DNA of 64,000 nt. It comes from a virus. The stretch is from positions 1 through 64,000 of IMG/VR virus record IMGVR_UViG_3300032294_002710. The stretch is one strand, 5' to 3'. The position numbers and the translations under genes are program-made. The notes below the pieces were generated by a model. It had not been told where the DNA came from. It did not search any database and saw only the letters and a list, made by a program, of their open reading frames with translations. Of this stretch, positions 5,065-63,905 are shown piece after piece; position 1 is the stretch's first letter, and every line of letters starts with the position of its first letter.

Positions 5065-5092
5065 AAAAAGAGGAGTTTAACTCCTCTTTTTT
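5064..5092. terminator. Bidirectional intrinsic terminator
   Basis: GAGGAGT at 5070-5076 pairs with ACTCCTC at 5080-5086 around a 3-base loop, flanked by an A tract on the left and a T tract on the right. It lies between two convergent genes (stops at 5064 and 5091), so it can serve both strands. Confidence 0.85.
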
Positions 5093-5711
5093 ATTTTATA
5101 GGACAGTGGTTAGCCGACCAAATATACTTGTGATTTCTTTTTATCTTCACACCTAACGATTCTGCAGTTGTGAATATATCATCTAAGCATTCTGAATCAG
5201 AACCTCCAACTATTTCTATACTTTTACCGTTTAATCCATTCAATATATTGTAAAGTTTTTTCGGACAGTGAAACCATTTGTGTTTGTTTCCAATATATGT
5301 TATTATTGTACCTTCTTTTGTTTTATAAACATCTCCTTTCTTTAGGAGACCTTTGTCTTCCTTATTAGAAATTTCATTGTATATTTTTTTATCTAGAATT
5401 TTTTTATAAAAATCAGCATCCACATCATAATTATATCTTTTTTCGATAATATCTATTTGATTGGGAAATGAATATAGATCTGGATGAATAGGTATTTCAG
5501 GATTTTCATCATACAGATAATCTACACCTACATTCTTACCATCTATATGATTATCAAAGATTTGATATACATTTGTAAAGTTTTTACAATAATTTTTCAA
5601 CTCGTTTAAATACATTTCTGTGAAAAATTTTCTAAAACTTTTTTGCACATCTACTATTATTAGTACATTATCCTTTCGATTAAAGTTTTCAAATGTTAGT
5701 AGATTATTCAT
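5091..5711 (-). CDS. Isochorismatase-like cysteine hydrolase
   Basis: The N-terminus VLIIVDVQKSF (Asp21) is the hallmark first strand of isochorismatase-like hydrolases. Near the C-terminus, IEIVGGSDSECLDDIFTTAESLGVKI matches the family's cysteine strand and following helix, so the nucleophile Asp and Cys are both present. The Lys of the triad is not certain; a Lys in the IIEKRY segment is a candidate. The middle is longer than in compact family members. Members act on small amides or isochorismate (nicotinamidase, carbamoylases), and the substrate here cannot be told. The first residues, MNNLLTFENF, resemble the short N-terminal signature shared by many proteins of this window. Confidence 0.65.
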   Translation of the reverse strand: MNNLLTFENFNRKDNVLIIVDVQKSFRKFFTEMYLNELKNYCKNFTNVYQIFDNHIDGKNVGVDYLYDENPEIPIHPDLYSFPNQIDIIEKRYNYDVDADFYKKILDKKIYNEISNKEDKGLLKKGDVYKTKEGTIITYIGNKHKWFHCPKKLYNILNGLNGKSIEIVGGSDSECLDDIFTTAESLGVKIKRNHKYIWSANHCPIK

Positions 5712-5780: not shown

Positions 5781-6380
5781 TTAAATTGGTAATTCTTCAG
5801 TACCTTCTTCACCTTCTTCCTTTTCCTCTTCACCTTCACCTTCTTCACCTACTTCTTCAAACTCACCTTGTGCTTGAGGTTGAGCTTCTGTTTGTACCTG
5901 TACTTGCGGTTGAGCTTCTGTTTGAGCTTGTGGTTGAGCTTGTGGTTGAGCCTGTACCGGTTCTGGCTGAGCTTGTGGTTGAGCTTGTGGTTGAGCCTGT
6001 GGTTGAGCCTGTGCTTGAGCCTGTGCTTGAGGTTGAGCCTGTGATTGAGCTTGTACTTCAGAAGGCGCTTGTGTTTCACCACCAGTTTGTGCTTGAGCAT
6101 CTCCCATAAGTGCTCCAGCTGGAATTTGATCAACATTTAAGAAATTTGTGTTGATATATTTAACAACTTCCTCAGCTATATCAACATCTCCGAAAAATTG
6201 ACGAAGATTTTTACCAGTTGTGTCTTTTACTTTTTTAACATAAGCATTTATTAAAGATTGTGGAATGTCTATAAATGTTCTAACTTTATAAATATCATTT
6301 ACTTGAAGAACAGATTCCTTGATTATTTCATCTCTTTTTCTGAGATTAGTGTACTTTCCAAATTTTCTAAGATGTTTCAT
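5781..6380 (-). CDS. Capsid-targeting-like N-terminus plus long QAQP-repeat acidic tail, unknown function
   Basis: 199 residues in three parts. An N-terminus (MKHLRKFGKYTN) matches the short signature found on many small proteins here. A folded-looking domain of about 85 residues follows (YKVRTFIDIPQSL...DVDIAEEVVKYINTNF). The rest is a disordered tail of QAQP/QAQA repeats (about residues 107-170) ending in a very acidic EEGEGEEE stretch. The repeat is built on a 12-base unit and gives long spurious reading frames in other phases. The tail composition resembles disordered virion or internal-head proteins. Function unknown. Confidence 0.6.
   Translation of the reverse strand: MKHLRKFGKYTNLRKRDEIIKESVLQVNDIYKVRTFIDIPQSLINAYVKKVKDTTGKNLRQFFGDVDIAEEVVKYINTNFLNVDQIPAGALMGDAQAQTGGETQAPSEVQAQSQAQPQAQAQAQAQPQAQPQAQPQAQPEPVQAQPQAQPQAQTEAQPQVQVQTEAQPQAQGEFEEVGEEGEGEEEKEEGEEGTEELPI
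5868..6056 (-). repeat. Degenerate 12-base tandem repeat encoding QAQP units
   Basis: Repeats of the plus-strand unit ggttgagcttgt and variants encode Pro-Gln-Ala-Gln on the minus strand. Synonymous and Pro/Ala/Thr/Val variation between copies shows slippage followed by drift. Confidence 0.85.
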
Positions 6381-17554: not shown

Positions 17555-18178
17555 ATGAGATATCTTAAAAAGTTTCAATTATTTTTAGAAGCAGAAGAAT
17601 TAGAGAGATCTGATGATATTAAGTCGGTCCCTGATGATAAAACCTTAGACTCATCCACTGATAATGCTCAAAAAAATGCCTTAATGGAGGTTGAAAAGAA
17701 TTTAAAAGACTTTCAAAATAGAAGGCAGAAAATGGAAAATATTTTCAATGATAAAAAAATAGTTTCAGATTCTGACTTGGAAAAAGAGCTAATGAATGGG
17801 GTCTATGATAATAAAAAAAATAATAGAGAAAGAAATAGATTTTTGAAAGACTTTGAATCTGTTCTTAGAAGTGAGAGAAGAAAGAAAAATCTTGAACAAT
17901 CTATTTCCAAAGATCAAGATAGCCTTAAATCCACTAATGATGAGATAAGCAGATTAAATGATGAGATGAAGATGGATTTGAGTGATAAAAGAAAAGAAGA
18001 ATTAATAATTAGTCTTAAAAAAAATGAGGATAGACTAAAAGAACTCAAGGATAATATACTTAAAAATCAGCAGATTCTAAAAAGAGACATTGTGGTCTGG
18101 CAAAAGAAAAGGGAAGATTTTAAAAAGGATATGAAAGATGAAGAGGAGAGAATAAAAAAACTGTCCACTAAAATATAA
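17555..18178 (+). CDS. Coiled-coil protein with capsid-targeting-like N-terminus
   Basis: 207 residues. MRYLKKFQLFLEAEELE matches the shared signature and contains a FLE/LEAE stretch suitable for T4-type protease cleavage. The rest is almost entirely charged coiled coil (DEISRLNDEMKMDLSDKRKEELI), very rich in Lys, Asp and Glu. An element TTGATATATAG ends 3 bases before the ATG. The layout (targeting peptide plus charged helical body) is that of an internal head or core protein. Unproven. Confidence 0.6.
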   Translation: MRYLKKFQLFLEAEELERSDDIKSVPDDKTLDSSTDNAQKNALMEVEKNLKDFQNRRQKMENIFNDKKIVSDSDLEKELMNGVYDNKKNNRERNRFLKDFESVLRSERRKKNLEQSISKDQDSLKSTNDEISRLNDEMKMDLSDKRKEELIISLKKNEDRLKELKDNILKNQQILKRDIVVWQKKREDFKKDMKDEEERIKKLSTKI

Positions 18179-22488: not shown

Positions 22489-22512
22489 ATTTTGCTGCTG
22501 AAGATGTAGAAT

Positions 22513-22547: not shown

Positions 22548-22805
22548 TATTCCTATATTTCCAAGATTTGAGCCTATATTTCCAATATTATTCATCATAG
22601 AACCTGGATTAAAGTTAGGCATCGATTTCTGTTGCTGATCTTCTTCCTGTTTTCTTTGTTTTTCTTCTTCTTCGTTTAGTTCGTTTATTATTTTAATATT
22701 CTCTTCTAACATCCAGAATGGCCACTCATCTATACAAAATTCATTTATATGAAAGTGCTTTTGTAAAAGAAGTTTATTTTTTAATAAAGGCCTCAAAGGC
22801 ATCAT
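22545..22805 (-). CDS. Small tail-assembly-chaperone-like protein in a shifted overlapping frame
   Basis: A frame 86 residues long from the ATG-ATG pair at 22805/22802, or reached by frameshifting from the upstream gene. It reads MMPLRPLLKNKLLLQKHFHINEFCIDEWPFWMLEENIKIINELNEEEEKQRKQEEDQQQ and then an Asn/Gly-rich end. The conserved-looking part lies after the upstream gene's stop. In T4, the small gp51 and gp26 are baseplate-hub assembly proteins, and tail chaperone pairs of other phages use a frameshift. The 32-base overlap, the shifted frame and an A6 run at the upstream stop fit that scheme. Confidence 0.6.
   Translation of the reverse strand: MMPLRPLLKNKLLLQKHFHINEFCIDEWPFWMLEENIKIINELNEEEEKQRKQEEDQQQKSMPNFNPGSMMNNIGNIGSNLGNIGI
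22774..22785 (-). other. Candidate programmed frameshift site
   Basis: On the minus strand the upstream gene ends ATT AAA AAA TAA. A lysyl-tRNA can slip two bases back on the six A residues with full pairing, or one base forward at the stop. Both place the ribosome in the frame of the small downstream gene and would give a fused long form. Confidence 0.4.
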
Positions 22806-25769: not shown

Positions 25770-26621
25770 ATGAGACATTTAAGAAGGTTCGAAGAATTGG
25801 ACCTTGATAAATATAAAAATTTTCTTGATAAGTATCAAAAGACCGGATACATATCTACCTCTTCTATTAAGAAATTAAAAGAATGGGGTTTAGATATTAA
25901 AGACTTTTCTCATATCGAGAATCAAGTTGTAAAATCCCTTGATTTCTTTAGAGATGGTGATGTTCATTTGTTTAATGATTATTTCATGGAGGTAAAAGAT
26001 AAATATCCGTATATATCATCTTATTTTTATTACTCATTAGATGTTACTCCTAAGAGCGCAGTAAAGTGGTCTAGTTCATTAGATAAATTTAATATTGTTG
26101 TCTCGATGGATGAGAATAATTTACCATCTAAAGATTCTACTAAAATAGATACTAATACTAGTGTTATTGATAAAGTTATTTCTGGTATAGAGGGTGCTCG
26201 TCAAAAAGAAATTGAAAAGCGAAAAGAACAGATGGATTCTTTCATGAAAAGAAGACCCGGAGCAGATGATGATTGGGTTAAGGGTTCCTATTTAAGAGCA
26301 AAATCTGAAAATTTTATAGAAAATTGCACTATATCTACAATTATAAATCTTCAAGTATTTTTGAATTTAAATGATTATGATCATTATTATAATCTAGGCG
26401 AAGACGAATGGGAATCCTATGATAAATATCTTAGAGAATTGAGAAAAACGGTGGTTGATGATATCGAATTAAATTTAAATTCAATTCTTAAAACATATTT
26501 TTCATCAATTGGACATTCTAATATTAATTCTAAAATAGAAAAAGGAGGATTTGGATGGAGAGGATTTTACGATCCTTCAAGTGATATTGTTATTTTTAAT
26601 ATAAAATGTGAACTAAATTAG
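25770..26621 (+). CDS. Hypothetical protein with capsid-targeting-like N-terminus, 283 aa
   Basis: The N-terminus MRHLRRFEELDLDKYKNF is the shared signature in nearly its commonest form. The rest is a mixed domain with no recognised motif: an aromatic-rich first half, a Lys/Glu-rich helix (KEIEKRKEQMDSFMKRR), and a C-terminal GGFGWRGFYDPSSDIVIF strand. A single gene with its own promoter-like element, it converges on a minus-strand operon with an 8-base overlap. Function unknown. Confidence 0.55.
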   Translation: MRHLRRFEELDLDKYKNFLDKYQKTGYISTSSIKKLKEWGLDIKDFSHIENQVVKSLDFFRDGDVHLFNDYFMEVKDKYPYISSYFYYSLDVTPKSAVKWSSSLDKFNIVVSMDENNLPSKDSTKIDTNTSVIDKVISGIEGARQKEIEKRKEQMDSFMKRRPGADDDWVKGSYLRAKSENFIENCTISTIINLQVFLNLNDYDHYYNLGEDEWESYDKYLRELRKTVVDDIELNLNSILKTYFSSIGHSNINSKIEKGGFGWRGFYDPSSDIVIFNIKCELN

Positions 26622-26879
26622 TTTCTCTAATTTAATTTTTAAATCACCAGTTCCTTTTATTATTCTGTGATATACCCCTTTGTGTATAAAAACTTTACCT
26701 TCAATTTTTATTGGTAGTTCATTATCTAATTGAAATTTCCAATCAGTTTCTTCAATAGGTTCTATTATTCTATCCTCTCTGTCACGATGCCAAGTTAATT
26801 CACCAGATTCTATATCTTGATAGAATGTTCTAATAAAAGTATTTTCAGATATTTTTTCTTCTTTAAATGGTAGTGTCAT
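26613..26879 (-). CDS. Cupin-like small protein conserved in large phages
   Basis: 88 residues. GELTWHRDREDRIIEP, TDWKFQLDNELPI and FIHKGVYHRIIKGTGDL form the strands and metal-like His/Glu pattern of a small cupin (jelly-roll) fold that I associate with T4-like phage genomes. Its ATG overlaps the TGA of the gene before it, so it is the last member of a coupled four-gene operon. The biochemical role is not known. Confidence 0.55.
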   Translation of the reverse strand: MTLPFKEEKISENTFIRTFYQDIESGELTWHRDREDRIIEPIEETDWKFQLDNELPIKIEGKVFIHKGVYHRIIKGTGDLKIKLEKLI

Positions 26880-27238
26880 AATGTAAATGTTAAATGTATT
26901 TCTCTTTCTATTATTCCTTGGCGATCTACTTGAATATCTTCAAAATCAAACTCAATTTTAATATCTGGATATTCTTCTTTGACTTTATCAATACAGGACT
27001 TCAAATTATTTGAAAAATCGTATAACTCTTTTATATTTTCATCGTAATAATCAAACATTGTGGTTCTCTTTAAGACTGGTTCTTTTATAAAGATCTCATA
27101 ATAGTCTTCTATTTCATCTGATTCTCCATCACGATTAAATCCTTCAGCTCCCTCATCTAAAAATTCTGAGAATATAAATTTTAAATATTGAATATCTAGC
27201 TCATTAGAATTTGACTCGTTAAATTTTTTTATTTTCAT
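26876..27238 (-). CDS. Small acidic protein with capsid-targeting-like N-terminus
   Basis: 120 residues: MKIKKFNESNSNELD, then a very acidic domain (GESDEIEDYYEIF, EEYPDIKIEFDFEDIQ). Start and stop overlap the neighbours by ATGA on both sides. F-N-E at residues 6-8 is a possible T4-type protease site. No family recognised. Confidence 0.55.
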   Translation of the reverse strand: MKIKKFNESNSNELDIQYLKFIFSEFLDEGAEGFNRDGESDEIEDYYEIFIKEPVLKRTTMFDYYDENIKELYDFSNNLKSCIDKVKEEYPDIKIEFDFEDIQVDRQGIIEREIHLTFTL

Positions 27239-27813
27239 ATTTTTTCAAAATTTTTTATAGAATCTTCACTGAATATTGCAACATTTTTTGAACCTTTTTC
27301 AATCACAAAGAATCCATCATATCCAGATTCTTTTATCTTATTGATAATAGGTTCACATTCAATTATTCTCCAAGCTCCATTTTTTATTCTCCAAAGATAA
27401 AAACTCACACTTTGTGATTTATCTGTTATATCAAATTCTTTATCTGTATCATAATCATAACCTTTAAATCCAGTGCCAACTTCTATAAACTTCGTACCAT
27501 TAGTCTGATCAACATATTTATCATTAATCATACTCTGTAAAGTGGATTTTAGATTTAATTTTTTCATTGTTTCTTTTTCCATTGGGTTGCAAAGCTTTAA
27601 ATTATCTTTCAATGTAACTTCCCAAACTGCACCATTTGGAAATTCGTCTTTTTCATTGAATCCTGCAAAGTCTTTTGCAAATTCTAAATTAGATGTTAGA
27701 AATATAGCACCTGCAAATCTTTTTTTCTCTGGTGGAAAATCTCCTTTTCTATTTCCGTGATATAGTTTCTCAGAAATAGATTCAAATAGTTTATATGGTT
27801 TTAAATGTTTCAT
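27235..27813 (-). CDS. ADP-ribosyltransferase-like protein with capsid-targeting-like N-terminus
   Basis: 192 residues. After the N-terminus MKHLKPYKLFESISE comes KLYHGNRKGDFPPEKKRF, then AIFLTSNLEFAKDFAGF and AVWEVTLKDN. The order YHG, then a T/S-rich strand followed by a helix with A..FA, then a beta strand is the front half of the ART fold (H-Y-E or R-S-E families). No definite catalytic Glu is assigned. T4 packages its ART (Alt) in the head and injects it, and Alt is also processed by the prohead protease. That parallel makes this the best candidate for an injected host-modifying enzyme. The fold is inferred from motif resemblance only. Confidence 0.5.
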   Translation of the reverse strand: MKHLKPYKLFESISEKLYHGNRKGDFPPEKKRFAGAIFLTSNLEFAKDFAGFNEKDEFPNGAVWEVTLKDNLKLCNPMEKETMKKLNLKSTLQSMINDKYVDQTNGTKFIEVGTGFKGYDYDTDKEFDITDKSQSVSFYLWRIKNGAWRIIECEPIINKIKESGYDGFFVIEKGSKNVAIFSEDSIKNFEKI

Positions 27814-28298
27814 ATTTTTTCAAAAATTAGTTCTACTTGATACATTTCTGGTAAGTAATTTTTTATAGATTTTTTGTTTATTTTAAAATCAAATCCGCTT
27901 TTTTTGTATCCTCTGTAATAAATTTGATAAAATTTATAATCTTCATTTTCCAAAAAACTAATTAAGTGGTTGATTTCATTTTCTATATCATCGAATTGAA
28001 ACGGCGTCCTGTGCCAAATCTCATACGGACCATTGACTTCCACCGCATTTATTTCTACACAAATAAAATTTTTGACGTGTTTGGAACTTTTAAGTCTTTC
28101 CTCATATGCACTTTTATCTTTTTCTGAATAAAATTGGCCGTATGTTGATAAGCTCGGATCGTTTTTTGATTTTCCTACCTTAATTAGATTCGATATAGAA
28201 ATTAAAAAATCATCATCAACTATATTGATAAATATATCCTTAATAGGCAATTCCAAATCATGAGATTCAAAAATTTTATATGATTTTAAATATTTCAT
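27810..28298 (-). CDS. Hypothetical protein with capsid-targeting-like N-terminus, 162 aa
   Basis: MKYLKSYKIFESHDLE is almost identical in pattern to the neighbouring gene's MKHLKPYKLFESISE, though the rest is unrelated. The body is alpha/beta (KNFICVEINAVEVNGPYEIW, YKFYQIYYRGYKKSGF). It overlaps the next start by ATGA. The first gene of the coupled set lies 3 bases upstream. No family recognised. Confidence 0.55.
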   Translation of the reverse strand: MKYLKSYKIFESHDLELPIKDIFINIVDDDFLISISNLIKVGKSKNDPSLSTYGQFYSEKDKSAYEERLKSSKHVKNFICVEINAVEVNGPYEIWHRTPFQFDDIENEINHLISFLENEDYKFYQIYYRGYKKSGFDFKINKKSIKNYLPEMYQVELIFEKI

Positions 28299-28301
28299 AT
28301 T

Positions 28302-28877
28302 TTACCAATAACCGGGATATGTTTTTCCACCAAATAAATGTCCGAATTTATTCAGTCGGCATGCCCAGTAACCTGGTTTAGTTTTATCTTTTTTCAAATG
28401 ACATTGATGACGAGCTGCAAAAGATTTTCTCGATTTTGGATCTGAAACTTTAGCACTCAATCCACCAGAAACATCACCAAAGTGAACCACTTTAACTTTT
28501 CCTGTTTTTGGATTCTTGACAAATACCTTATATTTCTTTGGACCAGAACTTCTTGTCGGATAGTTTAATTTAACTTCACGACCTTTATATTCTGCTTCAT
28601 TAATTTCCTCTATTATTTCAAGAGGTAAATCTAAAGGTACTAATTCACCTTCGAACATTTCAAATCTACCAATATCTGAACCTTCAAAAAGTTCTTTATC
28701 GTGTCCTGATAGTTCTATTCTACCACTATCATATAACTCTCTGGATTCTTTTAATAGTTTAAAATATGAATCTGATCCATATCTAAATATATTTTCAGTA
28801 ACTGACATATTATTATCAATATGATATTGTAGATGTTCGGATACTAACTCCTCGTTGAACTTTTTGATGTATTTCAT
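28302..28877 (-). CDS. Phage protein with conserved basic C-terminal domain and targeting-like N-terminus
   Basis: I take the ATG ending at 28877 (MKYIKKFNEELVSE), since the frame beyond has only a TTG and the promoter-like element sits 18 bases before this ATG. The C-terminal 70 residues, with KYKVFVKNPKTGKVKVVHFG, SRKSFAARHQCHLKKD and KPGYWACRLNKFG, form a basic Cys/His-containing module that I recall from many large T4-like phages, where its role is unknown. It could bind nucleic acid or zinc (inference). Confidence 0.6.
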   Translation of the reverse strand: MKYIKKFNEELVSEHLQYHIDNNMSVTENIFRYGSDSYFKLLKESRELYDSGRIELSGHDKELFEGSDIGRFEMFEGELVPLDLPLEIIEEINEAEYKGREVKLNYPTRSSGPKKYKVFVKNPKTGKVKVVHFGDVSGGLSAKVSDPKSRKSFAARHQCHLKKDKTKPGYWACRLNKFGHLFGGKTYPGYW

Positions 28878-28895: not shown

Positions 28896-28906
28896 TTATA
28901 TATTAA
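28896..28906 (-). promoter_or_regulatory. TTAATATATAA promoter-like element heading the 28.9-26.6 kb operon
   Basis: Exact minus-strand TTAATATATAA, 18 bases upstream of the ATG at 28877. Five minus-strand genes follow without room for another promoter. Confidence 0.6.
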
Positions 28907-44026: not shown

Positions 44027-44374
44027 ATGAGACATTTAAAAAAGTTTGAAGATCTTGACTATAAAGATATACTAGCTCAACAGGCTAAATTTAGAGAAGA
44101 GATTGAAAAATCTCGACTTGAAGAAATAGAAAGAAGAAGACAGGAATTATCTGGAAAGCATTTGTCAAAGCTATCATCAGAGTCTGAGAGAAAGAGTAAG
44201 ATGGAAACAATGATACAAGAACGACAAGAACTTACCCATTTAGTCATTCAAGCTTTAATTTATTCAGAACAGAATAAAGATGGATTTGATAATTTTAAAA
44301 ATGATTTAAAAGAACTATTGGATAAATATCCATTAGATAAGCTTCCTAGAAGTGGGTCATCAATTTATAGATAA
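44027..44374 (+). CDS. Small charged helical protein with capsid-targeting-like N-terminus
   Basis: 115 residues starting MRHLKKFEDLDYKD, which shares its first eight residues with the gene at 54211 but uses different codons for them. The rest is a charged helix (KFREEIEKSRLEEIERRRQEL) and a short helical domain. It sits directly upstream of the portal gene, among head genes, as expected for an internal head or core protein. Function unproven. Confidence 0.6.
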   Translation: MRHLKKFEDLDYKDILAQQAKFREEIEKSRLEEIERRRQELSGKHLSKLSSESERKSKMETMIQERQELTHLVIQALIYSEQNKDGFDNFKNDLKELLDKYPLDKLPRSGSSIYR

Positions 44375-44427: not shown

Positions 44428-46137
44428 ATGGCATCAACTTATAATCCTCTTGGGCAAAATACAACTCAGTTTAACAGCGCTATTGAAAATCGAGGACTTT
44501 TTAGTAGAATTTTAAGAAACTTATCATCATGGGGTATGAACTATGATGATATGATTATGAGAAACCAAGTCGGTGTTGGTATAAACGAAGATCCTTATAC
44601 TATACAAGGTAACTCAATGTATGACTTCTTTAGTAGAAGAGCTGTTGCCTCTGTTTTAAATAGAAAGTCAATTCCTTATTTAGATAGATCTTATGCTGAT
44701 AAAAGAAGAATTTTAAGAGAATATTCTATAAAGGATGAAATAAGAGATTTCGTATCAACAGTTTGTGATGAATGTGTTATTTACTCTGATAAAGATTTTT
44801 GCAGACCTAAAAACTTATCTAATGACTATACACAAGATGTTACGGATAAATATCAGGAATTCTTTGAGAAAATTTATAATAGATACGGTTTTTCAGATTC
44901 TGTTACCGCTTGGAACTTCATGAAAGATTTCTTGATTGATGGATATTTGGCAATGGAGATAGTTTGGGATGATAAAAAAAAGAATATTATACACTTTAAT
45001 AGATTAAGACCTGAGACTTTGGTTCCAGCTTTTGAACCATCTATAGGTAATATTTGGATTCAGTACCCGGAAGATCCACAATTAAGAAGAATATTTCTTG
45101 ATTCACAAATTATTTTTATTTCTTACTCTACTCAAAATGACTATTCTGAAACTTCATATGTGGAGGGCTTGATAAAACCATATAATCAGTTGAAGATAAT
45201 TGAGCAGACTAAAATTATGTTTAACATAATAAATGCCACTGTTTATCAAAAATTTACTATACCTGTTAAAGGTTTATCTAGACAAAAGGCTGAGGAGCAA
45301 ATAGGTCAATTAATAAATGATTACTCAGAGGAAGTTGAGTGGGATGACTCGTTAGGTACACTTCAAATAAATGGTACTAAACACCTACCATATAATAAAC
45401 AAATTTGGTTTCCAGAGGGTGATGCGGGTACTCCAAATATGGAGTTAGTCTCACCACAAGGACATAACCTAAATGAAGACGATATATTAAAGTGGTTTTA
45501 TAATATTTTAAAAAGAGCTTCAAAAATTCCAGTTCAAAGATTTGAAGGTGATAATGGTGGTGGTAATGTATTTACCGATGCTGCTGAGATGACAAGAGAT
45601 GAGGCTAAGTTTAGTAATTTTATTGGTAGATTAAGAGCGAATTTCAAAGAATTACTTGTTAAACCATTGAAATTGCAAATGTTGGTGGAATTTCCAGAAT
45701 TTAAAGATGATGAGGTTATTTTAAATCAAATTGATGTTGATTTTATTTCAAATCAATTGTTTGAGGAGTGGAAAAAATTAGGAAATATGTCTAAGAAAAT
45801 TGAAATACTTGGTAGTTATACTGGAATTCAGAAGGCTGATGGTACACCTTATTTCCACATAGAATATTTAATAGATCACGTGTTGAAATTATCATCTGAA
45901 GAAAAAGAGGAAAATAAAAGATACTGGGTTAAAGATGCTGCAGGAGCTGGATCTTCAGAGGCAACTCCTGGTGAGGCTGGTGCTGGTGAGGCTGGTGCTG
46001 AATTCGGTGGAGAAGAGGCCGGTGGCGCTCAAGCTACTCCTGAGACCCCTGAAGCTCCCGCTCCTGAGACAGGTGGTGGAGAAGCTGGTGGTGAGGCAGG
46101 TGGTGGAGAAGCTGGTGGTGGAGAATTTGAATTCTAA
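44428..46137 (+). CDS. gp20: Portal protein (T4 gp20-like)
   Basis: 569 residues. The N-terminal part (SMYDFFSRRAVASVLNRKSIPYLDRSY...KRRILREYSIKDEI) and the body (DGYLAMEIVWDDKKKNII, NRLRPETLVPAFEP, VEGLIKPYNQLKIIEQT, WFYNILKRASKIPVQRFEGD) follow the gp20-type portal. The last 75 residues are a low-complexity Gly/Ala/Glu/Pro tail, unusual for a portal. The dodecameric portal is the packaging vertex and head-assembly initiator. The gene order portal, protease-scaffold, capsid matches T4 (20-21-22-23). Confidence 0.93.
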   Translation: MASTYNPLGQNTTQFNSAIENRGLFSRILRNLSSWGMNYDDMIMRNQVGVGINEDPYTIQGNSMYDFFSRRAVASVLNRKSIPYLDRSYADKRRILREYSIKDEIRDFVSTVCDECVIYSDKDFCRPKNLSNDYTQDVTDKYQEFFEKIYNRYGFSDSVTAWNFMKDFLIDGYLAMEIVWDDKKKNIIHFNRLRPETLVPAFEPSIGNIWIQYPEDPQLRRIFLDSQIIFISYSTQNDYSETSYVEGLIKPYNQLKIIEQTKIMFNIINATVYQKFTIPVKGLSRQKAEEQIGQLINDYSEEVEWDDSLGTLQINGTKHLPYNKQIWFPEGDAGTPNMELVSPQGHNLNEDDILKWFYNILKRASKIPVQRFEGDNGGGNVFTDAAEMTRDEAKFSNFIGRLRANFKELLVKPLKLQMLVEFPEFKDDEVILNQIDVDFISNQLFEEWKKLGNMSKKIEILGSYTGIQKADGTPYFHIEYLIDHVLKLSSEEKEENKRYWVKDAAGAGSSEATPGEAGAGEAGAEFGGEEAGGAQATPETPEAPAPETGGGEAGGEAGGGEAGGGEFEF

Positions 46138-47088: not shown

Positions 47089-49275
47089 ATGAAATCTATT
47101 CTTATTGTTGAAAATTCAACAAACTCTCTCTCAAAGATTAACGAGAGCAATAATAAGTCCCAAAATATTTTAGGTGGTATTTTCACAGAATTCGATATTA
47201 AAAATCGTAATGAGAGAATTTATACTGCTGATAAATTTCTTCCTTGTTTAGAGGAAATGAATGAAAGGATTACAAACATGGGTTCTGTTTATGGTGAGTT
47301 TGATCATCCAGATGTATTTGATACATCTTTGGCTAGAGCATCACACTTAGTTACAAAAGCGGAATTCGTTAAAGAAAATAATAGAGTCGAAGGTGAAATT
47401 AGATTACTCAACACTCATTGGGGTAAAGAAGCTCAAGCATTGGTTAACGATGGTTGTCCAGTTTTTGTTTCTTCACGCGCTGCTGGTATTACAGAGTCAG
47501 ACGGTACTGTTACATTGAAAAAGTTATTTACTTATGATATTGTGGCTGACCCTGGTTTTGCATCAGCAAAAATGAATGTTAAGACACTTAATGAATCGTT
47601 CGGCTTCTCTAATAAAGCTAACTTTAGGATATATGAAATGTCCGATGAGTCAAAAATAAATGATTTATTTAATATGAACACTAATGATTTAGTTACTAAA
47701 GAACAGTTAACTGATTATTCTAAATATCTTATTAATGAGTTGGCTTCTACTAAGAAAGAAGTTCGTGACGCAATTAAGAAAGGTAATCTTAACCCAAAGA
47801 AATTAGAACAGTTACTTGAGTACTATGAAAACTTAAACGAGACAAATTCTCAAATTGTTAAGTACTTAGACTATTTGGCTGAAAAAGTTCAAGTTGTTGT
47901 TAATGAGAACACAAGTCTTAAAACAACTGCTGAAAAACTTATCAAGCACAATGATTATTTGGCAGAAAACCTTGAAAAGGCAATAAATTACACTGAGTAT
48001 GTTGCTGAAAATCTTGATAAGAATATTGAGTATTCAGAATACTTAGCAGAAAATCTTGACAAGAACATCTCTTACTCAGAATACATCGCTGAAAATCTTG
48101 ATAAGAACATTTCTTATTCTGAATATTTGGCTGAAAATCTTGATAAGAATATAGCTTATTCTGAATATTTGGCTGAAAATCTTGATAAGAACATTGCATA
48201 CGCAGAATACATCGCTGAAAATCTTGATAAGAACATTTCTTATTCAGAATATTTAGCAGAACATCTTGATAATTCTATCGCTTACTCAGAATATTTGGCT
48301 GAGCATGTTGAGGGAAATATCGCATACTCAGAGTACATCGCAGAAAATCTTGATGATAACATTGCATACTCTGAATATATTGCAGAAAACCTTGATAAGT
48401 CAATCTCTTATCAAAGTTTGATTGTTGAAAAATTAAATGGTGGTAAGTTATTTGAAAGTAACGAAGAAGAAGATAGATTACCATCTTTAAATGTCGTTGG
48501 TATTGATTCATACGAAGAAGAGGCCGATGATAAATATGAAGAGGAAGAAGAAAATGCATGGAATGATAACTCAGAAGCTCCTTCTGCTGAAGAAACTCCA
48601 GGCGTATCTGAATCTAATGAGGCTGAAGAAACATCTTCTGAAGCTGATGAGGCTGAAGAAACATCTTCTGAAGCTGATGAAATGTCATCTGAATCTGAGG
48701 AAACACCTTCTGAATCTGATGAATATAATGAGTCACCTGCTTATGAAGGTAACTCTGATACTGAATTATCTAAATCTATTGATAAATTGATCGAAGAAGC
48801 TAAAAAACGTAAAGCTATTGAAACATCCGATCTACACTTTTTAAAATTCTTAAACAAATCTCAGGTTGATAGTTACTACTCTTTAACTAATGAAGAGCAG
48901 GAAGCTGTTACACTTTACATAAGCGAAAAAAGTTTCTTTACACAACAAGATGTGTTGAGATTAATCTCTGAGGCTTTGACATCTAAGAATGAAACTCTTG
49001 AAGAAAGAGTAATCAGATTGATGCCTGAAAACATCAAGCCAATCTGGAATCAATTAAATGAGAGTGCTAGAAAATCCATTTTATCTCAAGCTAGATTATA
49101 TCCAGCTGAGGTTATGTCAACTGATTCACAAGTTGAACATTTCTGGATGACTAGAAATCTCAAGAAAAATGAATCTGTTACTAAGAAATTAGTTTCACAT
49201 GAGAGTATGATTCAAGAAGATAAAATATCTGAAAAGGAATTGAATGCAATCATGGAAAGATTTAAAAACCTTTAA
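47089..49275 (+). CDS. gp21: Prohead protease fused to a scaffold-like repeat and helical domain
   Basis: 728 residues against about 212 for T4 gp21. Residues 1-190 are the S80-type prohead protease: GSVYGEFDHPD gives the catalytic His, VFVSSRAAG the Ser, and LFTYDIVADPGF follows. Residues about 288-440 hold ten 14-residue repeats of the type Y-x-E-Y-[LIV]-A-E-N-L-D-K-N-I-x. An acidic Ser/Glu linker (about 460-560) and a helical C-terminal domain follow. T4 has a separate protease (gp21) and scaffold (gp22), and here both functions seem joined (inference). The repeats contain [LIV]-A-E, matching the T4 protease preference for L/I-x-E, so the core may be digested by its own head. Confidence 0.85.
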   Translation: MKSILIVENSTNSLSKINESNNKSQNILGGIFTEFDIKNRNERIYTADKFLPCLEEMNERITNMGSVYGEFDHPDVFDTSLARASHLVTKAEFVKENNRVEGEIRLLNTHWGKEAQALVNDGCPVFVSSRAAGITESDGTVTLKKLFTYDIVADPGFASAKMNVKTLNESFGFSNKANFRIYEMSDESKINDLFNMNTNDLVTKEQLTDYSKYLINELASTKKEVRDAIKKGNLNPKKLEQLLEYYENLNETNSQIVKYLDYLAEKVQVVVNENTSLKTTAEKLIKHNDYLAENLEKAINYTEYVAENLDKNIEYSEYLAENLDKNISYSEYIAENLDKNISYSEYLAENLDKNIAYSEYLAENLDKNIAYAEYIAENLDKNISYSEYLAEHLDNSIAYSEYLAEHVEGNIAYSEYIAENLDDNIAYSEYIAENLDKSISYQSLIVEKLNGGKLFESNEEEDRLPSLNVVGIDSYEEEADDKYEEEEENAWNDNSEAPSAEETPGVSESNEAEETSSEADEAEETSSEADEMSSESEETPSESDEYNESPAYEGNSDTELSKSIDKLIEEAKKRKAIETSDLHFLKFLNKSQVDSYYSLTNEEQEAVTLYISEKSFFTQQDVLRLISEALTSKNETLEERVIRLMPENIKPIWNQLNESARKSILSQARLYPAEVMSTDSQVEHFWMTRNLKKNESVTKKLVSHESMIQEDKISEKELNAIMERFKNL
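47950..48420 (+). repeat. Tandem 42-base repeat encoding 14-residue scaffold units
   Basis: About eleven head-to-tail 42-base units in frame, encoding YSEYLAENLDKNI and variants. Several neighbouring units are nearly identical in DNA (CTTGATAAGAACATT), others have synonymous changes. Antisense frames over this block are repeat artefacts. Confidence 0.9.
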
Positions 49276-53828: not shown

Positions 53829-53860
53829 ACACCAACTCAAAAGGTTGGTGTTTCTTTTTA
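53829..53860. terminator. Terminator after the tmRNA gene
   Basis: ACACCAAC (53829-53836) pairs with GTTGGTGT (53844-53851), followed by TTCTTTTT. It is also close to the stop of the convergent gene at 53858. Confidence 0.8.
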
Positions 53861-54211
53861 TACAATATTGATTTGAATTTTATTTTCTTGGCCACAATCC
53901 CAAATGTTTATAACTTTACATTTTTTATTTAGAGCCTTTTCTATTCTTTCTAAGACTTCTAAAATAGATTTTATTAATTCTAATTTTAGCTTTGAGTATT
54001 CAATTGAATATATGTCTCCCGATATTAATTTGTAGGTATTTATCATTAATGATATCCCTTTTACACTCTTATCAAGAGAGTTGAATGGATATAATTCACC
54101 AGTAATTTCGGGGTAATCATCTTTTAGTTCTTTTAAAATATCTTTAATTTCTGAAATGTCATTTTGATAATCCTCATATTCTGAGTTTTCAAATTTTTTA
54201 AGGTGTCTCAT
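53858..54211 (-). CDS. Small protein with capsid-targeting-like N-terminus, 117 aa
   Basis: Begins MRHLKKFENSEYEDYQ, identical in its first eight residues to the protein at 44027 but with other codons (CAC CTT against CAT TTA). The rest is an acidic helical domain and a C-terminal strand with CKVINIWDCGQEN. A single gene with its own short-spaced TTAATATATAA. Function unknown. Confidence 0.6.
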   Translation of the reverse strand: MRHLKKFENSEYEDYQNDISEIKDILKELKDDYPEITGELYPFNSLDKSVKGISLMINTYKLISGDIYSIEYSKLKLELIKSILEVLERIEKALNKKCKVINIWDCGQENKIQINIV

Positions 54212-56496: not shown

Positions 56497-56784
56497 ATGA
56501 TAATTAAGAAGTTTAACGAGTCACAAGATAGTGGAAATGAACTCGAAATGTATTTAGCAGATCTAAAAAAATTAGGATTTGAGGTTAAATATCGTGTTTT
56601 ACAAGGACTTAATGGCACATCAATAAGAGCTACTAAAAGAGATTGTGATTTTAATGCATCTGTTGATGCTTATAAATCTTTATATAACAAATTAGAAAGT
56701 AGTGATAAATATAGTTTTATAAATAATTCTATTAATTTTAATTATGGAACATGCCGTATCTCAATGGATATGAAAAATAAATAA
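56497..56784 (+). CDS. Small protein with capsid-targeting-like N-terminus, 95 aa
   Basis: MIIKKFNESQDSGNELE matches the signature, with F-N-E as the candidate cleavage site. It is followed by a compact alpha/beta domain (YLADLKKLGFEVKYRVLQGL...INFNYGTCRISMDM). A single gene between its own promoter-like element and a terminator. Function unknown. Confidence 0.55.
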   Translation: MIIKKFNESQDSGNELEMYLADLKKLGFEVKYRVLQGLNGTSIRATKRDCDFNASVDAYKSLYNKLESSDKYSFINNSINFNYGTCRISMDMKNK

Positions 56785-57351: not shown

Positions 57352-58557
57352 TTAATAGTCATCATCTTCCCAATGTTCATCATCATCTCCATCACCGTCA
57401 TCATCCCATATTATAGTTTCACATCCTGTGAAGCTACTATTGCTTATTTTTCCAGTATTTCTATCCCAGTATCTCATAGTGTCAACTGATGGGTATGAAT
57501 CATATCCACTTGGTTTTACTTTTGTATAGGCTACCCAGGTATCTCTATGTGATTCTTCTCTTACAATGAATCCTTTAGCTTTTGCATACTCTTTAAATAC
57601 ATTTTTATCAGAGTCTTTACTCACATATATGTAGTCCATTAGTTTTTTACCATCTTCTAAGTTCCAAAGTAGTGCACGACCAATAATTTTATTAGGTTGA
57701 TCAAATGATTTAAGTATTAATAGACTAACAGTATCTGGATTGTCGATATAGATTTCCAACCAATCTCTTCTACCAACTGCCTGACAAGATGATCCTAAAT
57801 TACCCATTCTTGGGAACTCATAATTTTCTCTTTTATACCAGAAGTATAGTTCCTCACCGTTTACTATTTCAAATCTTGAGAAAACATCGTTCATAACTGA
57901 TAATATTCCTCTAAATTCGTTTACAAAAACCTCGATTTCAGCATCTGTAAACTTTAAACTCTTCGCATTTAATAGTGATCTAATGGCTCTACCAACTCTA
58001 ATTTCTTGTCTACTAGTTGTGAATATTTTTTTCTTAATTTCTTCACGAGCATCTTTTAACCTTTCTGCATTATACACACCTTCACCATTTTCAAACTTAA
58101 CATAACACCAGGTTTTATTAGTTTTAACTGATAGCCATTTTGAAATAACTTCACCGACTTCTGTTCTATTTGGTTGGTATACCGGTGTTCCGATTGGTGG
58201 CGCCTCATATCCAAGTCTTTTGAAAATATTTTGATTACCTTCTGTGTTTGTTAACCAAGCTCCTCTATTTCCTGTCCAATTTACTAATTCTTTATCATTT
58301 CTTAAAAGTGCTTGAGCTGCTCTATCATTCGTAAATGTTACTATATTATCATTATCTATTTTAACATCAAAGAAGTTAGCTGTTACATCCAAATCTTGAT
58401 TTTCGATTTCTATTAGAGATTTAGCGATGTTGTTATCTTTCATTTTAGAAAGTACATTCTTAAACTTAGGCGAGTAAACAACATTCGACTCAAGAAGTAA
58501 ATTTTCTAATAGTATTCTTTCGGATATAAATTCTCTGTATTCTAAAACTAATTTCAT
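57352..58557 (-). CDS. Conserved phage protein with capsid-targeting-like N-terminus, 401 aa
   Basis: The N-terminus MKLVLEYREFISERILLEN is the closest in this window to the T4 sequence MKTYQEFIAE, with FISE in place of FIAE. In the C-terminal half, FPRMGNLGSSCQAVGRRDWLEIYIDNPDTVSLLIL, KIIGRALLWNLEDGKKLMDYIYV and VFKEYAKAKGFIVREES form a module that I associate with large DNA phages and viruses (SCM..Y..NP..LLil....GRALLW..FMDRIY), without known activity. It ends in a dense Asp/Glu tail. The module and targeting-like start make it a candidate injected protein (inference). Confidence 0.6.
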   Translation of the reverse strand: MKLVLEYREFISERILLENLLLESNVVYSPKFKNVLSKMKDNNIAKSLIEIENQDLDVTANFFDVKIDNDNIVTFTNDRAAQALLRNDKELVNWTGNRGAWLTNTEGNQNIFKRLGYEAPPIGTPVYQPNRTEVGEVISKWLSVKTNKTWCYVKFENGEGVYNAERLKDAREEIKKKIFTTSRQEIRVGRAIRSLLNAKSLKFTDAEIEVFVNEFRGILSVMNDVFSRFEIVNGEELYFWYKRENYEFPRMGNLGSSCQAVGRRDWLEIYIDNPDTVSLLILKSFDQPNKIIGRALLWNLEDGKKLMDYIYVSKDSDKNVFKEYAKAKGFIVREESHRDTWVAYTKVKPSGYDSYPSVDTMRYWDRNTGKISNSSFTGCETIIWDDDGDGDDDEHWEDDDY

Positions 58558-60644: not shown

Positions 60645-61334
60645 TTATTTTTTACTTATTGTGTTTATAATATCTCTCTCACTTTCGGTTTTTTGAATAT
60701 TAAAATCAGTTAAATCAATGTCTCTAATTAGATTTCTGAATTTTCTATCGGTATATGACCAACTATTTGATTTTATAACAATATTGTTGTCTACTAGTCT
60801 AACAGTTGTGTCATTACTAAAATCACTTTTTGCTGCTGAATTTCTACTTTTAATTTCTTTAAAAGTCTGCATTAATTTAATATCACTTCTATCTACTTCG
60901 GTTTCTAATAATATGAATAGGTATATTGCTGGGTTATAGGTTATTGTTCCAACATTTATGTGTAAAAAGCAATTATCGTATCTTTCTGATATTTGATAAA
61001 GCTCTCTAAAAATACTGAATATCTTTTTATCTTTTATAAGATTTCTTTTTCCGAATCTATCTCCTAATTTTACAGTATCTTGAAGTTGGTCTAATTTAAT
61101 TTCTATGCAGAAACAATATTTATCATCATCATAAATTGGCTTATTGTGTAAAATATTTAATACCTTCTCACCAATTTGTCCTCTATCTAAAGCTTGTTTA
61201 CTAAAATACCCTTTATGTAGTTCGTAATTAATTAGTTCATCTCTTAGATCTAATAGTACATCACTAAGATCTTGCTCGTCTTCTTCATGTGCCTCTCTTA
61301 GTAACTCTATGAACTTTAATATTTTATTTTTCAT
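60645..61334 (-). CDS. Hypothetical protein, 229 aa
   Basis: The N-terminus MKNKILKFIELLREAHEE is a longer version of the shared signature (KFIELLRE). The body is alpha/beta (IYDDDKYCFCIEIKLDQL, YDNCFLHINVGTITYNPAIYLFILL) and ends in a basic helix. It overlaps the gene before it by 11 bases and is the last of four minus-strand genes. No motif recognised. Confidence 0.55.
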   Translation of the reverse strand: MKNKILKFIELLREAHEEDEQDLSDVLLDLRDELINYELHKGYFSKQALDRGQIGEKVLNILHNKPIYDDDKYCFCIEIKLDQLQDTVKLGDRFGKRNLIKDKKIFSIFRELYQISERYDNCFLHINVGTITYNPAIYLFILLETEVDRSDIKLMQTFKEIKSRNSAAKSDFSNDTTVRLVDNNIVIKSNSWSYTDRKFRNLIRDIDLTDFNIQKTESERDIINTISKK

Positions 61335-62118
61335 AGATATTTACTAAAAATTTAACTTTTATTTCACCTCTCATTGTCGGTGAATTTTTACTTGTTACTG
61401 TTTCAATGTCAAAAAAATGTTTAACTTGATAGATATCTGGTAAATTAAATAATTCTTCAGTTAATTTTATAAAAATCGATTTAATTTTTGATAACTCATC
61501 AATCATCTCTAATTCAATTTTATATGTTTTTTCTAAAGTCATATAGTACATTGGTAAAGATCCAGTTGTGTGCATTAGATTCATTTTAGAATCTTTTAAA
61601 AAAACTCTACTAACATTACATTCATATTTATTTGCTCTAAAATCTTTTAGAAGATCGTTAAAAGATCTAGCTGATTTTTTGTGATATAATGCTTTTGTTT
61701 CTAGACTATTTTCGTCAAATTTCAATCTTAGTTTTAAATATCCATCACCTCTTTTTAAATCAAATAATGAATAGTCTTCTATGTGATATAAAGATTCAAT
61801 TGCATAAGAGTGCATTCTTCTATCTTTTTCTTTACTCTCATTCGATTTAATATAGACTTCGATACATGGTGTTAGTCCAGCTGCTGCGTATGCTTCAGTC
61901 TTTTCCTCAACTTCCAATTTGTTCTCATATACATATTCAAAATTCTTTCCTTTTAGATAAAACTTTACCTCGATTGAAACATCTATCCCATCATGTAGTT
62001 CAGCAAATGATTCAAATATTTCATCTTCTGTGATAAACCAAATAGATTTTATAAAATTTTCATTTCTATCGTGTCTTCTGACGTATGTACTTTCAAAAAG
62101 ATATTTTAGACTTCTCAT
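61324..62118 (-). CDS. Hypothetical protein, 264 aa, related to its upstream neighbour
   Basis: MRSLKYLFESTYVRRHD gives a clear L-F-E-S targeting-like start. The middle contains IEDYSLFDLKRGDGYLKLRLKF, paralleled by ITDYSIFDVKYEPKF in the next gene upstream (62120-62809). Similar overall strand order suggests the two are distant paralogues. Beta-rich, no catalytic motif seen. Function unknown. Confidence 0.55.
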   Translation of the reverse strand: MRSLKYLFESTYVRRHDRNENFIKSIWFITEDEIFESFAELHDGIDVSIEVKFYLKGKNFEYVYENKLEVEEKTEAYAAAGLTPCIEVYIKSNESKEKDRRMHSYAIESLYHIEDYSLFDLKRGDGYLKLRLKFDENSLETKALYHKKSARSFNDLLKDFRANKYECNVSRVFLKDSKMNLMHTTGSLPMYYMTLEKTYKIELEMIDELSKIKSIFIKLTEELFNLPDIYQVKHFFDIETVTSKNSPTMRGEIKVKFLVNIYEK

Positions 62119-62810: not shown

Positions 62811-63905
62811 TTAAAAATTTTCTTTTATTTCTTGTAATAATTCTTCAAACGATGAGAATTTCATATCATATTCATTTTCTCCATCACCATATGGTCCAGA
62901 ATGACTCTCAGATCTTTTGACAAGTATTTCTTCTAAATCATTGAAGTCTATATTCCAATCTTCGTGAAATCCTTCTGAATATCCACTGGCACCAAAACCA
63001 ATATGAATTGTGTTATTTTCTTCATTGTATTCATAATCTAACCATTTTCCCCAACTCTCATCACTTTCCTCGTTGAGCTTTTTGGATATTTCATCCAGTT
63101 CATAGAAGAAATTTAAAAGAGTATCATCGTACCATTCATAAACTCTTTCAAATTGTTTATCATATGCGTATTTTTTTAACTCCATTACTTTACCAACATA
63201 TCCGTTTCTTCTCAATAATTTGAATACTAAGTTGCCGGTCGAATACTCACCACCTTCTTCTAATCCTGATTGTCTAGATTTTTTTATTTTCTTCCAGATT
63301 TTATCAATTTTTTCCTTAAATGCAGAATATTTATCTTCATCTACCTGAGATTCAATCTCGTCTACAACGTCCATTATTGCAGTTGCCTTTTTGGCTAGAA
63401 CTTCTTCATCTGGTACAAATTCTACTTTTTCTGGTTTCTTAATCCATTTATTTTTCATTAATGAAAATACACCACCCATTCTACCAGTTGATATACCTTC
63501 TTTAAGACTCTTAACATCTTGAAGAGCTACTTCAACTTCATATCCCTTTAGTGTGATATCGTGTTGCATATTCCATTGTTTTTTGGCATAATCGCAAAGT
63601 TTTTCTACAAGCTCTTCATTTTCATCTATTTCTTTATAATCAATAATTATATGTAGGTCATAGTCAGAATATTTTTCGGACCAGTTGTAATTACAAAGAG
63701 ATCCGCAGAATGCGATGTCTTTAACTTCACAGTTTAGTTCAACAGACTCAAAAAAATCTCTACCAATTTGAAGAAGATCTTCTCTTACTTTTGAGTCAAT
63801 TTCAAAATTGTCCCAAATTTTTGGATTTAGATCATCTTTTAAATAAAATGATTTAATTGGCTCAAGATCTTTTTGTTGAAATTCTTCAAATTTTTTGAAT
63901 CTCAT
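62811..63905 (-). CDS. Nucleotidyltransferase-fold protein with capsid-targeting-like N-terminus
   Basis: 364 residues: MRFKKFEEFQQKDLEP (signature), then a Pol-beta-type nucleotidyltransferase domain. FCGSLCNYNWSEKYSDYDLHIIIDY gives the G-S and D-x-D motifs, and YEVEVALQD the third acid. The family is widespread in phages without a settled substrate. A Lys-rich helical middle and an acidic C-terminal domain (HIGFGASGYSEGFHEDWNIDF...) follow. First gene of the four-gene minus-strand operon. The product could modify a nucleotide, RNA or protein of the host (inference). Confidence 0.7.
   Translation of the reverse strand: MRFKKFEEFQQKDLEPIKSFYLKDDLNPKIWDNFEIDSKVREDLLQIGRDFFESVELNCEVKDIAFCGSLCNYNWSEKYSDYDLHIIIDYKEIDENEELVEKLCDYAKKQWNMQHDITLKGYEVEVALQDVKSLKEGISTGRMGGVFSLMKNKWIKKPEKVEFVPDEEVLAKKATAIMDVVDEIESQVDEDKYSAFKEKIDKIWKKIKKSRQSGLEEGGEYSTGNLVFKLLRRNGYVGKVMELKKYAYDKQFERVYEWYDDTLLNFFYELDEISKKLNEESDESWGKWLDYEYNEENNTIHIGFGASGYSEGFHEDWNIDFNDLEEILVKRSESHSGPYGDGENEYDMKFSSFEELLQEIKENF

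What the first reader, a model, noticed from the sequence alone, without database searches (positions are those of the whole stretch)
27235..28877. Coupled operon of targeting-tagged proteins including an ADP-ribosyltransferase-like enzyme
Five minus-strand genes follow one promoter-like element. Four junction-sharing genes (28298 to 26613) overlap by ATGA, and the first four genes have the targeting-like start. One contains an ART-like front half (KLYHGN, FLTSNLEFAKDFAG). T4 Alt is precisely an injected, protease-processed ART, so this looks like a cassette of injected host-takeover proteins.
Basis: partly seen in the sequence, partly recalled or inferred. Interest (0 to 1): 0.7.

Follow-up and report, generated by a model that had tools for sequence, protein, structure and literature searches.

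The report
Huge-phage capsid tags on ADP-ribosyltransferase operon
This fragment of a huge bacterial virus carries a run of genes, one of them an ADP-ribosyltransferase-fold enzyme, whose proteins begin with a short tag resembling the one phage T4 uses to load proteins into its head, and the same kind of tag sits on many of this virus's other proteins.

Summary
In detail: five minus-strand genes (28877-26613), three ATGA overlaps, the first four with a shared N-terminal tag. The protein at 27235-27813 has the ADP-ribosyltransferase (ART) fold, nearest to phage polyvalent-protein ARTs, not T4 Alt.

The bigger result is the tag. The window belongs to a Mahaphage-like huge phage. Tags start 11 of 65 window ORFs (shuffles 0.5); a tight DNA pattern for the tag occurs 98 times in a 642-kb relative (reversed control 11). 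The tag layout matches T4's capsid targeting sequence. The window encodes a gp21-like protease fused to a scaffold-like region repeating YxxY[LIV]AE.

In some phages the same ART carries another tag, EQxxKMKKLMG. A close variant, scanned in IMG/VR, sits at 32 N-termini (20 families) and 14 C-termini, 11 of these homologues of one T4-like scaffold.

I read the cassette as head-packaged, protease-trimmed, injected proteins. Fold and tag statistics are shown; packaging, cleavage, injection and enzyme activity are inferred.

The parts
28899..28906 (-). TTAATATA box, candidate promoter element 29 nt before the first ATG
   Evidence: enriched before tagged genes, Fisher
28302..28877 (-). gene 1: tag MKYIKKFNE + body with DUF5754-like / phrog_7595 region; homologue in cultured Flavobacterium phage immuto aligns only from residue 16
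27810..28298 (-). gene 2: tag MKYLKSYKIFES + member of a multi-copy family (36 of 117 tagged proteins)
27235..27813 (-). gene 3: tag MKHLKPYKLFES + ADP-ribosyltransferase-fold domain (residues 15-192)
27781..27813 (-). tag of the ART, residues 1-11 (MKHLKPYKLFE), predicted disordered
   Evidence: (residues 1-14 pLDDT < 50)
26876..27238 (-). gene 4: tag MKIKKFNES + unknown body
26613..26879 (-). gene 5: untagged 88-aa protein, adjacent to the gene-1 homologue in phage immuto and often near the ART in other contigs
44027..44374 (+). tagged gene (MRHLKKFEDLD) directly upstream of the portal gene
44428..46137 (+). portal protein, phrog_213
47089..49275 (+). head maturation protease (T4 gp21-like, phrog_207) fused to a long scaffold-like C-terminal part
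47863..48387 (+). 11 copies of Y-x-x-Y-[LIV]-A-E in the protease-scaffold fusion, the last ten spaced exactly 14 residues
49315..51045 (+). major capsid protein, phrog_138; candidate cleavage site SINE43|N
5091..5711 (-). enzyme-like ORF whose N-terminus (MNNLLTFENFN) differs from its homologues in two other huge phages while the bodies align
5781..6380 (-). tagged ORF MKHLRKFGKY
17555..18178 (+). tagged ORF MRYLKKFQLFLEAEE, upstream of the tail sheath gene
25770..26621 (+). tagged ORF MRHLRRFEE
53858..54211 (-). tagged ORF MRHLKKFENSEY, same family as gene 2
56497..56784 (+). tagged ORF MIIKKFNES
57352..58557 (-). tagged ORF MKLVLEYREFISE (same form as T4 YQEFIAE)
61324..62118 (-). tagged ORF MRSLKYLFES
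62811..63905 (-). tagged ORF MRFKKFEEFQ

Best explanation
The N-terminal tag is the huge-phage counterpart of the T4 capsid targeting sequence. Proposed steps: the operon is transcribed with virion genes; the tag binds the prohead core formed by the protease-scaffold fusion; the gp21-like protease cuts after the Glu of the hydrophobic-x-Glu site (for the ART after FE11 or SE15); the mature proteins stay in the head and enter the host with the DNA. The ART then modifies a host molecule using NAD+. Shown here: operon, tag enrichment, tag form, T4-type head module with repeated cleavage-like sites, ART fold, exchange of the ART's tag between phage lineages. Inferred: core binding, cleavage, packaging, injection, catalysis, target.
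For: Tag statistics: 11 of 65 starts vs 0.49 in shuffles; tag DNA pattern vs reversed control: LR756502 98 vs 11, G005 39 vs 2, G006 18 vs 0, G000 16 vs 1. The enriched positions in 462 ORFs (K2, H/Y3, L/I4, K5, Y/F7, then F/E) include residues 4 and 7, which control targeting in T4 IPIII, while residues 8 and 10 control processing (PMC9026906, passages); T4 IPII and IPIII begin MKTYQEFIAE. Hydrophobic-x-E follows in 92 of 117 tagged ORFs vs shuffle mean 45, max 60. Tags of T4's own form: 16 of 185 ORFs of the 735-kb phage vs 0.89 in shuffles. The protease-scaffold fusion repeats that form 11 times (background 0.21 per 1000 residues). Tagged bodies are diverse: 36 of 117 in one family, 81 outside it. 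Pfam families: 11 in 117 tagged, 44 in 117 untagged, the latter including RecA, clamp loader, tRNA synthetase, ClpP. The ART body keeps at least 62% identity while its start differs: 20 of 22 distinct homologues have the MK/MR-type tag, 2 have MNLQEQTYKMKKLMGLKELTLEN. A close variant of the latter, EQxx[RK]M[QK]KLAG, sits at 32 N-termini (20 families, hydrophobic-x-E following in 32 of 32) and 14 C-termini, of which 11 match the immuto scaffold, several beside portal, protease or MCP genes. ART fold: model pLDDT 91.2, BFVD E down to 1.8e-6 with ART-PolyVal names.
Against: No virion proteomics was available for these phages and no cleavage was shown. The tag type of this operon (L-K-x-Y...FES/NES) does not match its own scaffold better than other proteins (window scaffold ranks 13-22 of 397), so core binding is inferred from T4. 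The MCP site SINE43 aligns with T4 FEN, not with FLTE65 where T4 gp23 is cut. Stretches of LR756504, LR756500 and Lak-B5 show almost no tags of these forms, so it is not general to Mahaphages. The matrix also picks what I judge false tags (D12 methyltransferase, cytidylyltransferase, ORF 38119). The ART has Phe at the strand-2 position where polyvalent ARTs are described with Tyr.
Confidence: 0.68

Rival explanations
1. The N-terminal peptide is a localisation or partner-binding tag for something other than the capsid (host membrane, a phage-made compartment, a chaperone), and the proteins act inside the infected cell.
For: Tags are short, basic and amphipathic; no virion data; this operon's tag type is not found in its own scaffold; some tagged ORFs are not near head genes.
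Against: Layout equals the T4 capsid targeting sequence; a protease-like site follows the tag; tagged genes sit just upstream of the portal gene in two phages; in other phages the ART carries a tag whose close variant is shared with the scaffold C-terminus.
Confidence: 0.17
2. Shared ancestry: the tagged genes are paralogues from tandem duplication and the common start is a remnant without function.
For: One family holds 36 of 117 tagged proteins and lies in tandem arrays; gene 2 of the operon belongs to it.
Against: 81 of 117 lie outside the family; SET, NUDIX, exonuclease, HNH and ART bodies are tagged; the 81 strict tags are written with 79 different 21-mers of DNA and 63 different heptapeptides, so the form and not the DNA is kept.
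Confidence: 0.08
3. The ART works as a toxin-like or regulatory partner of the untagged small gene 5 within the phage lytic programme, without being packaged.
For: Gene 5 homologues lie close to the ART in many contigs, and a gene-5-like ORF lies on a contig of the L010 lineage.
Against: Gene 5 pairs with gene 1, without an ART between them, in immuto and Melnitz, so it is not a dedicated ART partner; 22 of 22 distinct ARTs carry an N-terminal extension of one of the two tag types.
Confidence: 0.07

Closest known systems
T4 capsid targeting sequence of internal proteins IPII/IPIII and Alt, cut by gp21
   Same: 10-15 residue N-terminal tag, hydrophobic/aromatic residues 4 and 7, hydrophobic-x-Glu end, gp21-like protease and T4-like portal and MCP in the same genome; unrelated bodies behind one tag
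   Different: A handful of proteins in T4; here 11 of 65 window ORFs by strict regex and 98 pattern hits in a 642-kb relative. Protease and scaffold-like region are one fused protein here, separate gp21 and gp22 in T4. Tag sequence differs between lineages.
T4 Alt, injected ADP-ribosyltransferase
   Same: ART fold with an N-terminal propeptide-like tag in a phage with a T4-type head
   Different: Alt is of the R-S-E clade (PMC5512222, passages); this one has H in strand 1 and D in strand 5, is about 190 aa, and aligns with polyvalent-protein ARTs
ART-PolyVal domain (Pfam PF18760) of phage polyvalent proteins
   Same: Fold, H and D positions, phage setting, predicted virion delivery of the known members
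   Different: Single-domain protein with a cleavable-looking tag instead of a large multidomain virion protein; Phe for Tyr in strand 2; Pfam score below the curated cut-off
Propeptides of phiKZ-like giant phages (SPN3US)
   Same: Head protease removes N-terminal propeptides from injected proteins
   Different: Several of those propeptides are over 100 residues (PMC5694885, passages), not one short shared tag

Membership tests
ADP-ribosyltransferase superfamily | ART fold | tested here: met
   Model pLDDT 91.2; VIA: 59 of 717 chains Z >= 5, the listed rows being almost all ART-fold, best Z 7.0; Foldseek against PDB alone only E 0.06 or weaker; BFVD E to 1.8e-6
ADP-ribosyltransferase superfamily | NAD+-dependent transfer | not testable with these tools
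   needs an assay
ART-PolyVal / H-Y-D clade | His in strand 1 | tested here: met
   H19 in 19 of 19, strand 16-20
ART-PolyVal / H-Y-D clade | Tyr in strand 2 | tested here: inconclusive
   F38 in 19 of 19 at the end of strand 34-38; position assigned by strand order, no superposition available
ART-PolyVal / H-Y-D clade | Asp in strand 5 | tested here: met
   D166 in 18 of 19, Ser in L047, assigned by order of the motifs
ART-PolyVal / H-Y-D clade | Pfam PF18760 above curated cut-off | tested here: not met
   Best 19.6 bits, E 0.0016, cut-off 31.2; 2 of 9 members of A1 match at E <= 10
T4 Alt family | R-S-E active site | tested here: not met
   Strand-1 residue is His, invariant in 19 of 19; clade definition from PMC5512222 passages
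T4-type capsid targeting sequence | about 10 N-terminal residues with hydrophobic/aromatic residues 4 and 7 | tested here: met
   Position enrichment over 462 ORFs; T4 mapping in PMC9026906 passages
T4-type capsid targeting sequence | hydrophobic-x-Glu site at the end of the tag | tested here: met
   92 of 117 vs shuffle mean 45; 32 of 32 for the EQ type; cleavage itself not tested
T4-type capsid targeting sequence | directs proteins into the head | not testable with these tools
   needs virion proteomics or a fusion assay
Mahaphage clade | clusters with the largest phages by MCP or terminase tree | tested here: inconclusive
   Best MCP matches are LR756502 and LR745206 at about 71% identity; no tree built; the link of these records to the clade rests on genome size and PMC7162821 passages

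The most novel reading that the evidence does not exclude
Capsid tags of T4-type phages are cut-away copies of the phage's own scaffold peptides: N-terminal tags imitate scaffold segments (the scaffold C-terminus EQxxRMQKLAGI in immuto-like phages; the 14-residue scaffold repeat YSEYIAE, like T4's YQEFIAE, in huge phages), so any gene that gains the peptide plus a protease site becomes virion cargo. Huge phages have used this to load on the order of a hundred different proteins, including ADP-ribosyltransferases, into one head for injection.
Probability: 0.5. Interest if true: 0.88.

Novelty: new variant of a known kind. Interest (0 to 1): 0.77.

Why it matters
If right, a sequence tag lets one list from DNA alone which proteins of uncultured huge phages travel in the virion and act first in the host, turning many 'hypothetical proteins' into predicted injected effectors. 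It offers a simple evolutionary route (copy a scaffold peptide) for recruiting cargo and makes the role of T4's tag directly testable in other phages. The ART becomes a candidate early host-modifying enzyme of Mahaphage-like viruses, outside the Alt family.

Tried and rejected
Sigma-70 promoter scan: not above chance. Pfam/PHROG on the five genes: only gene 1 gave a clear hit, phrog_7595 of unknown function. tblastn of the ART against 50,697 phage records: none; genome contigs: 210 stretches matched a pattern, none a relative. Profile search of PDB sequences: only weak hits, best E 0.061. PF18760 search of five genomes, Moabite included: 0 of 5, so no reference ART could be fetched to place the catalytic residues. 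Short-peptide tblastn of the tags: EQ-type none; a composite of the MK type 2 records, both already known relatives. Scaffold mimicry for this operon's own tag type: not supported; the motif inside proteins was rare (6 cases) and none was in the scaffold. Idea that the 206-aa ORF at 5091 is an isochorismatase-type hydrolase: recalled motif only; Pfam and PDB gave nothing. MNLQEQ as a common tag of the L010 lineage: only one per contig. Lak tags: not demonstrated. Paper searches, listings only: searches gave known T4, SPN3US, P1 and related papers; searches listed none whose title or abstract start describes such tags in huge phages (open-licence PMC only; most subscription papers are not covered). 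One search (cyanophage A4 ejectosome) found no paper.
Full report
WHAT IS THERE. Searches confirm five minus-strand ORFs between 28877 and 26613. Genes 2 to 5 share three ATGA overlaps; gene 1 ends 3 nt before gene 2. The first four start MKYIKKFNE, MKYLKSYKIFES, MKHLKPYKLFES and MKIKKFNES; gene 5 does not. A box TTAATATA lies 29 nt before the first ATG. The same box stands 30 nt before the tagged gene 44027, which precedes the portal gene, 39 nt before the tail sheath gene, and before 20 of 43 tagged against 25 of 146 untagged genes with an upstream gap of at least 40 nt in the window and the LR756502 sample. Window portal, protease and MCP genes lack an exact copy. Sigma-70-like sites are not above chance.

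WHICH VIRUS. The window is 64 kb of a 134,852-base virus record. It holds tail sheath, tail tube, portal (phrog_213), head maturation protease (phrog_207, the T4 gp21 type) and MCP (phrog_138). The MCP is about 71% identical to those of the 642-kb LR756502 and the 634-kb LR745206, and 49% to the 735-kb LR756501. The huge-phage paper places its genomes above 634 kb in the Mahaphage clade, predicted to infect Bacteroidetes (PMC7162821, passages). I built no tree.

THE TAG IS GENOME-WIDE. A strict regex fits 11 of 65 ORF starts in the window; 2000 shuffles give 0.49 on average and 4 at most; 2 of 334 internal Met fit. A DNA pattern for the tag against its reversed control: LR756502 98 vs 11, G005 39 vs 2, G006 18 vs 0, G000 16 vs 1, LR756501 14 vs 10, four contigs of the L008-L011 lineage 0. 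A position matrix cut at 1% of internal Met gives 12 of 65 in the window and 105 of 397 ORFs in 242 kb of LR756502; three of those five stretches were picked for density and the matrix was trained on that phage. Stretches of LR756501, LR756500, Lak-B5 and LR756504 give 1 of 45, 2 of 38, 0 of 32 and 1 of 42. A second form, [FYW]xx[FY][ILVM]xE, the form of T4's MKTYQEFIAE, fits 16 of 185 ORFs in 142 kb of LR756501 (shuffles 0.89, max 4); in T4 itself it fits 2 of 111 ORFs examined, exactly IPII and IPIII. The window's own phage has MKLQKYQEFINE and MKLVLEYREFISE.

WHY A CAPSID TAG. In T4 the first 10 residues of IPIII suffice for packaging; residues 4 and 7 matter for targeting, 8 and 10 for processing (PMC9026906, passages); that gp21 prefers a (L/I)-x-E site is partly recalled. 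Over 462 ORFs, the strongest enrichments are K2, H/Y3, L/I4, K/R5, Y/F7, then F and E at 9-11. A hydrophobic-x-E follows in 92 of 117 tagged ORFs (shuffle mean 45, max 60). The protease ORF 47089 is a fusion: after the protease comes a scaffold-like region with 11 copies of Y-x-x-Y-[LIV]-A-E, the last ten spaced 14 residues. Cleavage-like motifs reach 31 per 1000 residues there against 1.9 in other ORFs. Among 397 proteins of the two phages, the T4 tag matches the two fusion proteins best (ranks 1 and 2). Against this: the operon's own tag form does not match the scaffold better than other proteins (window scaffold ranks 13-22 of 397), and the MCP's SINE43, conserved as E-N in 5 of 5 huge-phage MCPs, aligns with T4 FEN and not with the T4 cut at 65.

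WHAT CARRIES IT. After removing 16 residues, 117 tagged proteins form 90 clusters by phmmer; a profile joins 36 into one family that includes gene 2 and ORF 53858, leaving 81 outside. Pfam families: 11 in 117 tagged proteins (SET, NUDIX, PQ-loop, HNH, RNase_T and others, with a D12 methyltransferase and a cytidylyltransferase that I judge chance fits of the matrix) and 44 in a random 117 untagged ones (RecA, clamp loader, tRNA synthetase, ClpP and others; 25 shown). The same body can carry different starts: the ORF at 5091 is 66% identical to its LR756502 homologue and 31% to that of LR756501, the latter alignment beginning near the ends of the tags.

THE ART. Twelve, then 33 IMG/VR loci encode it, none in the GTDB contig set of 84,980 species with the patterns used and none in 50,697 phage records. 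Foldseek against BFVD: 12 matches at E <= 0.001, best 1.8e-6, several named ART-PolyVal. VIA: 59 of 717 chains at Z >= 5, best 7.0; the listed rows are RES toxins, ParT, MbcT, PARPs, Tpt1, diphtheria-type toxins and 6kyf (which I recall as AcrIF11), plus a cyanophage A4 pre-ejectosome chain at the top. Foldseek against the PDB alone is weak, E 0.06 at best. Pfam ART-PolyVal matches one homologue over nearly its full length at E 0.0016, below the cut-off. The polyvalent clade is defined by H in strand 1, Y in strand 2, D in strand 5, and Alt by R-S-E (PMC5512222, passages). Here H19 is in 19 of 19, F38 in 19 of 19, D166 in 18 of 19. So it is an ART-fold protein nearest the polyvalent clade, with an open question at strand 2. 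About 44% of phage ARTs in a survey lie in contexts that suggest packaging (PMC9503650, passages).

THE TAG EXCHANGE. Of 22 distinct ART homologues, 20 begin with the MK/MR-type tag and 2 (L008, L010) with MNLQEQTYKMKKLMGLKELTLEN. The cultured Flavobacterium phage immuto holds homologues of genes 1 and 5 side by side; its gene-1 homologue aligns only from residue 16, so the window's tag is an addition or replacement there. Immuto also has MKKQILSEQFRRMQKLAGIITES at the start of one protein and EQVSRWQKLAGIIK at the end of its scaffold-position protein, just upstream of the MCP gene. These are the only two matches of the motif pattern in its 160 kb. An IMG/VR scan for EQxx[RK]M[QK]KLAG found 59 stretches, 58 ORFs with the motif were classed as 32 N-terminal, 14 C-terminal and 12 internal or with unclear start (an earlier classing by open segments gave 39, 14 and 8). 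Eleven of the 14 C-terminal ones match the immuto scaffold, several beside portal, protease or MCP genes. The N-terminal ones have 23 distinct bodies in 20 families, and a hydrophobic-x-E follows within 7 residues in 32 of 32. The KLMG variant was found only on the four contigs already known to carry this ART. Thus in that group the tag looks like the scaffold's own end plus a protease site.

VERDICT. Its ART is real by fold, though not of the Alt family. The cassette is one small part of a proteome-wide tagging that most likely serves head packaging and injection. Packaging, cleavage, injection and catalysis are not shown.

Noticed in passing
L067:30370-30834 and L069:5627-6868 (Flavobacterium phage immuto); L080-L138: EQxx[RK]M[QK]KLAG-type motif at N-termini of unrelated proteins and at the C-terminus of the T4-like scaffold.
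   Followed up: yes
window 47089-49275: Head maturation protease and scaffold-like region are one fused protein with a 14-residue repeat, unlike separate gp21/gp22 of T4.
   Followed up: partly
L023 (LR756502.1 1-50000): Long arrays of tagged genes, many of one family with consensus IKDILLDLIDDGFEV of unknown function.
   Followed up: partly
L014:848-1291: Tagged SET-domain protein in a phage.
   Followed up: partly
L067:20989-22054, 22501-23049, 31883-32641, 37327-37626; L069:3356-3577, 5242-5469: Further shared starts in immuto (MKKSQLRxIIKEAL; MENxFDLKKFLVENK); genes with related starts (MKKSQIVKAVQEVL; MENNFDIHKWQ) sit between portal and protease and next to the protease.
   Followed up: no
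window 26613-26879 and neighbours: Small untagged gene 5 stays next to gene 1 in immuto and next to a large gene-1-domain protein in Methylophilales phage Melnitz; function unknown.
   Followed up: partly
L054:4001-4861, L056:194-1054: ART homologues with an extra C-terminal domain of about 90 residues.
   Followed up: no
upstream regions of window and LR756502 stretches: Two enriched upstream motifs, TTAATATA and TATATTTG; the latter resembles the Bacteroidetes -7 element as I recall it.
   Followed up: partly
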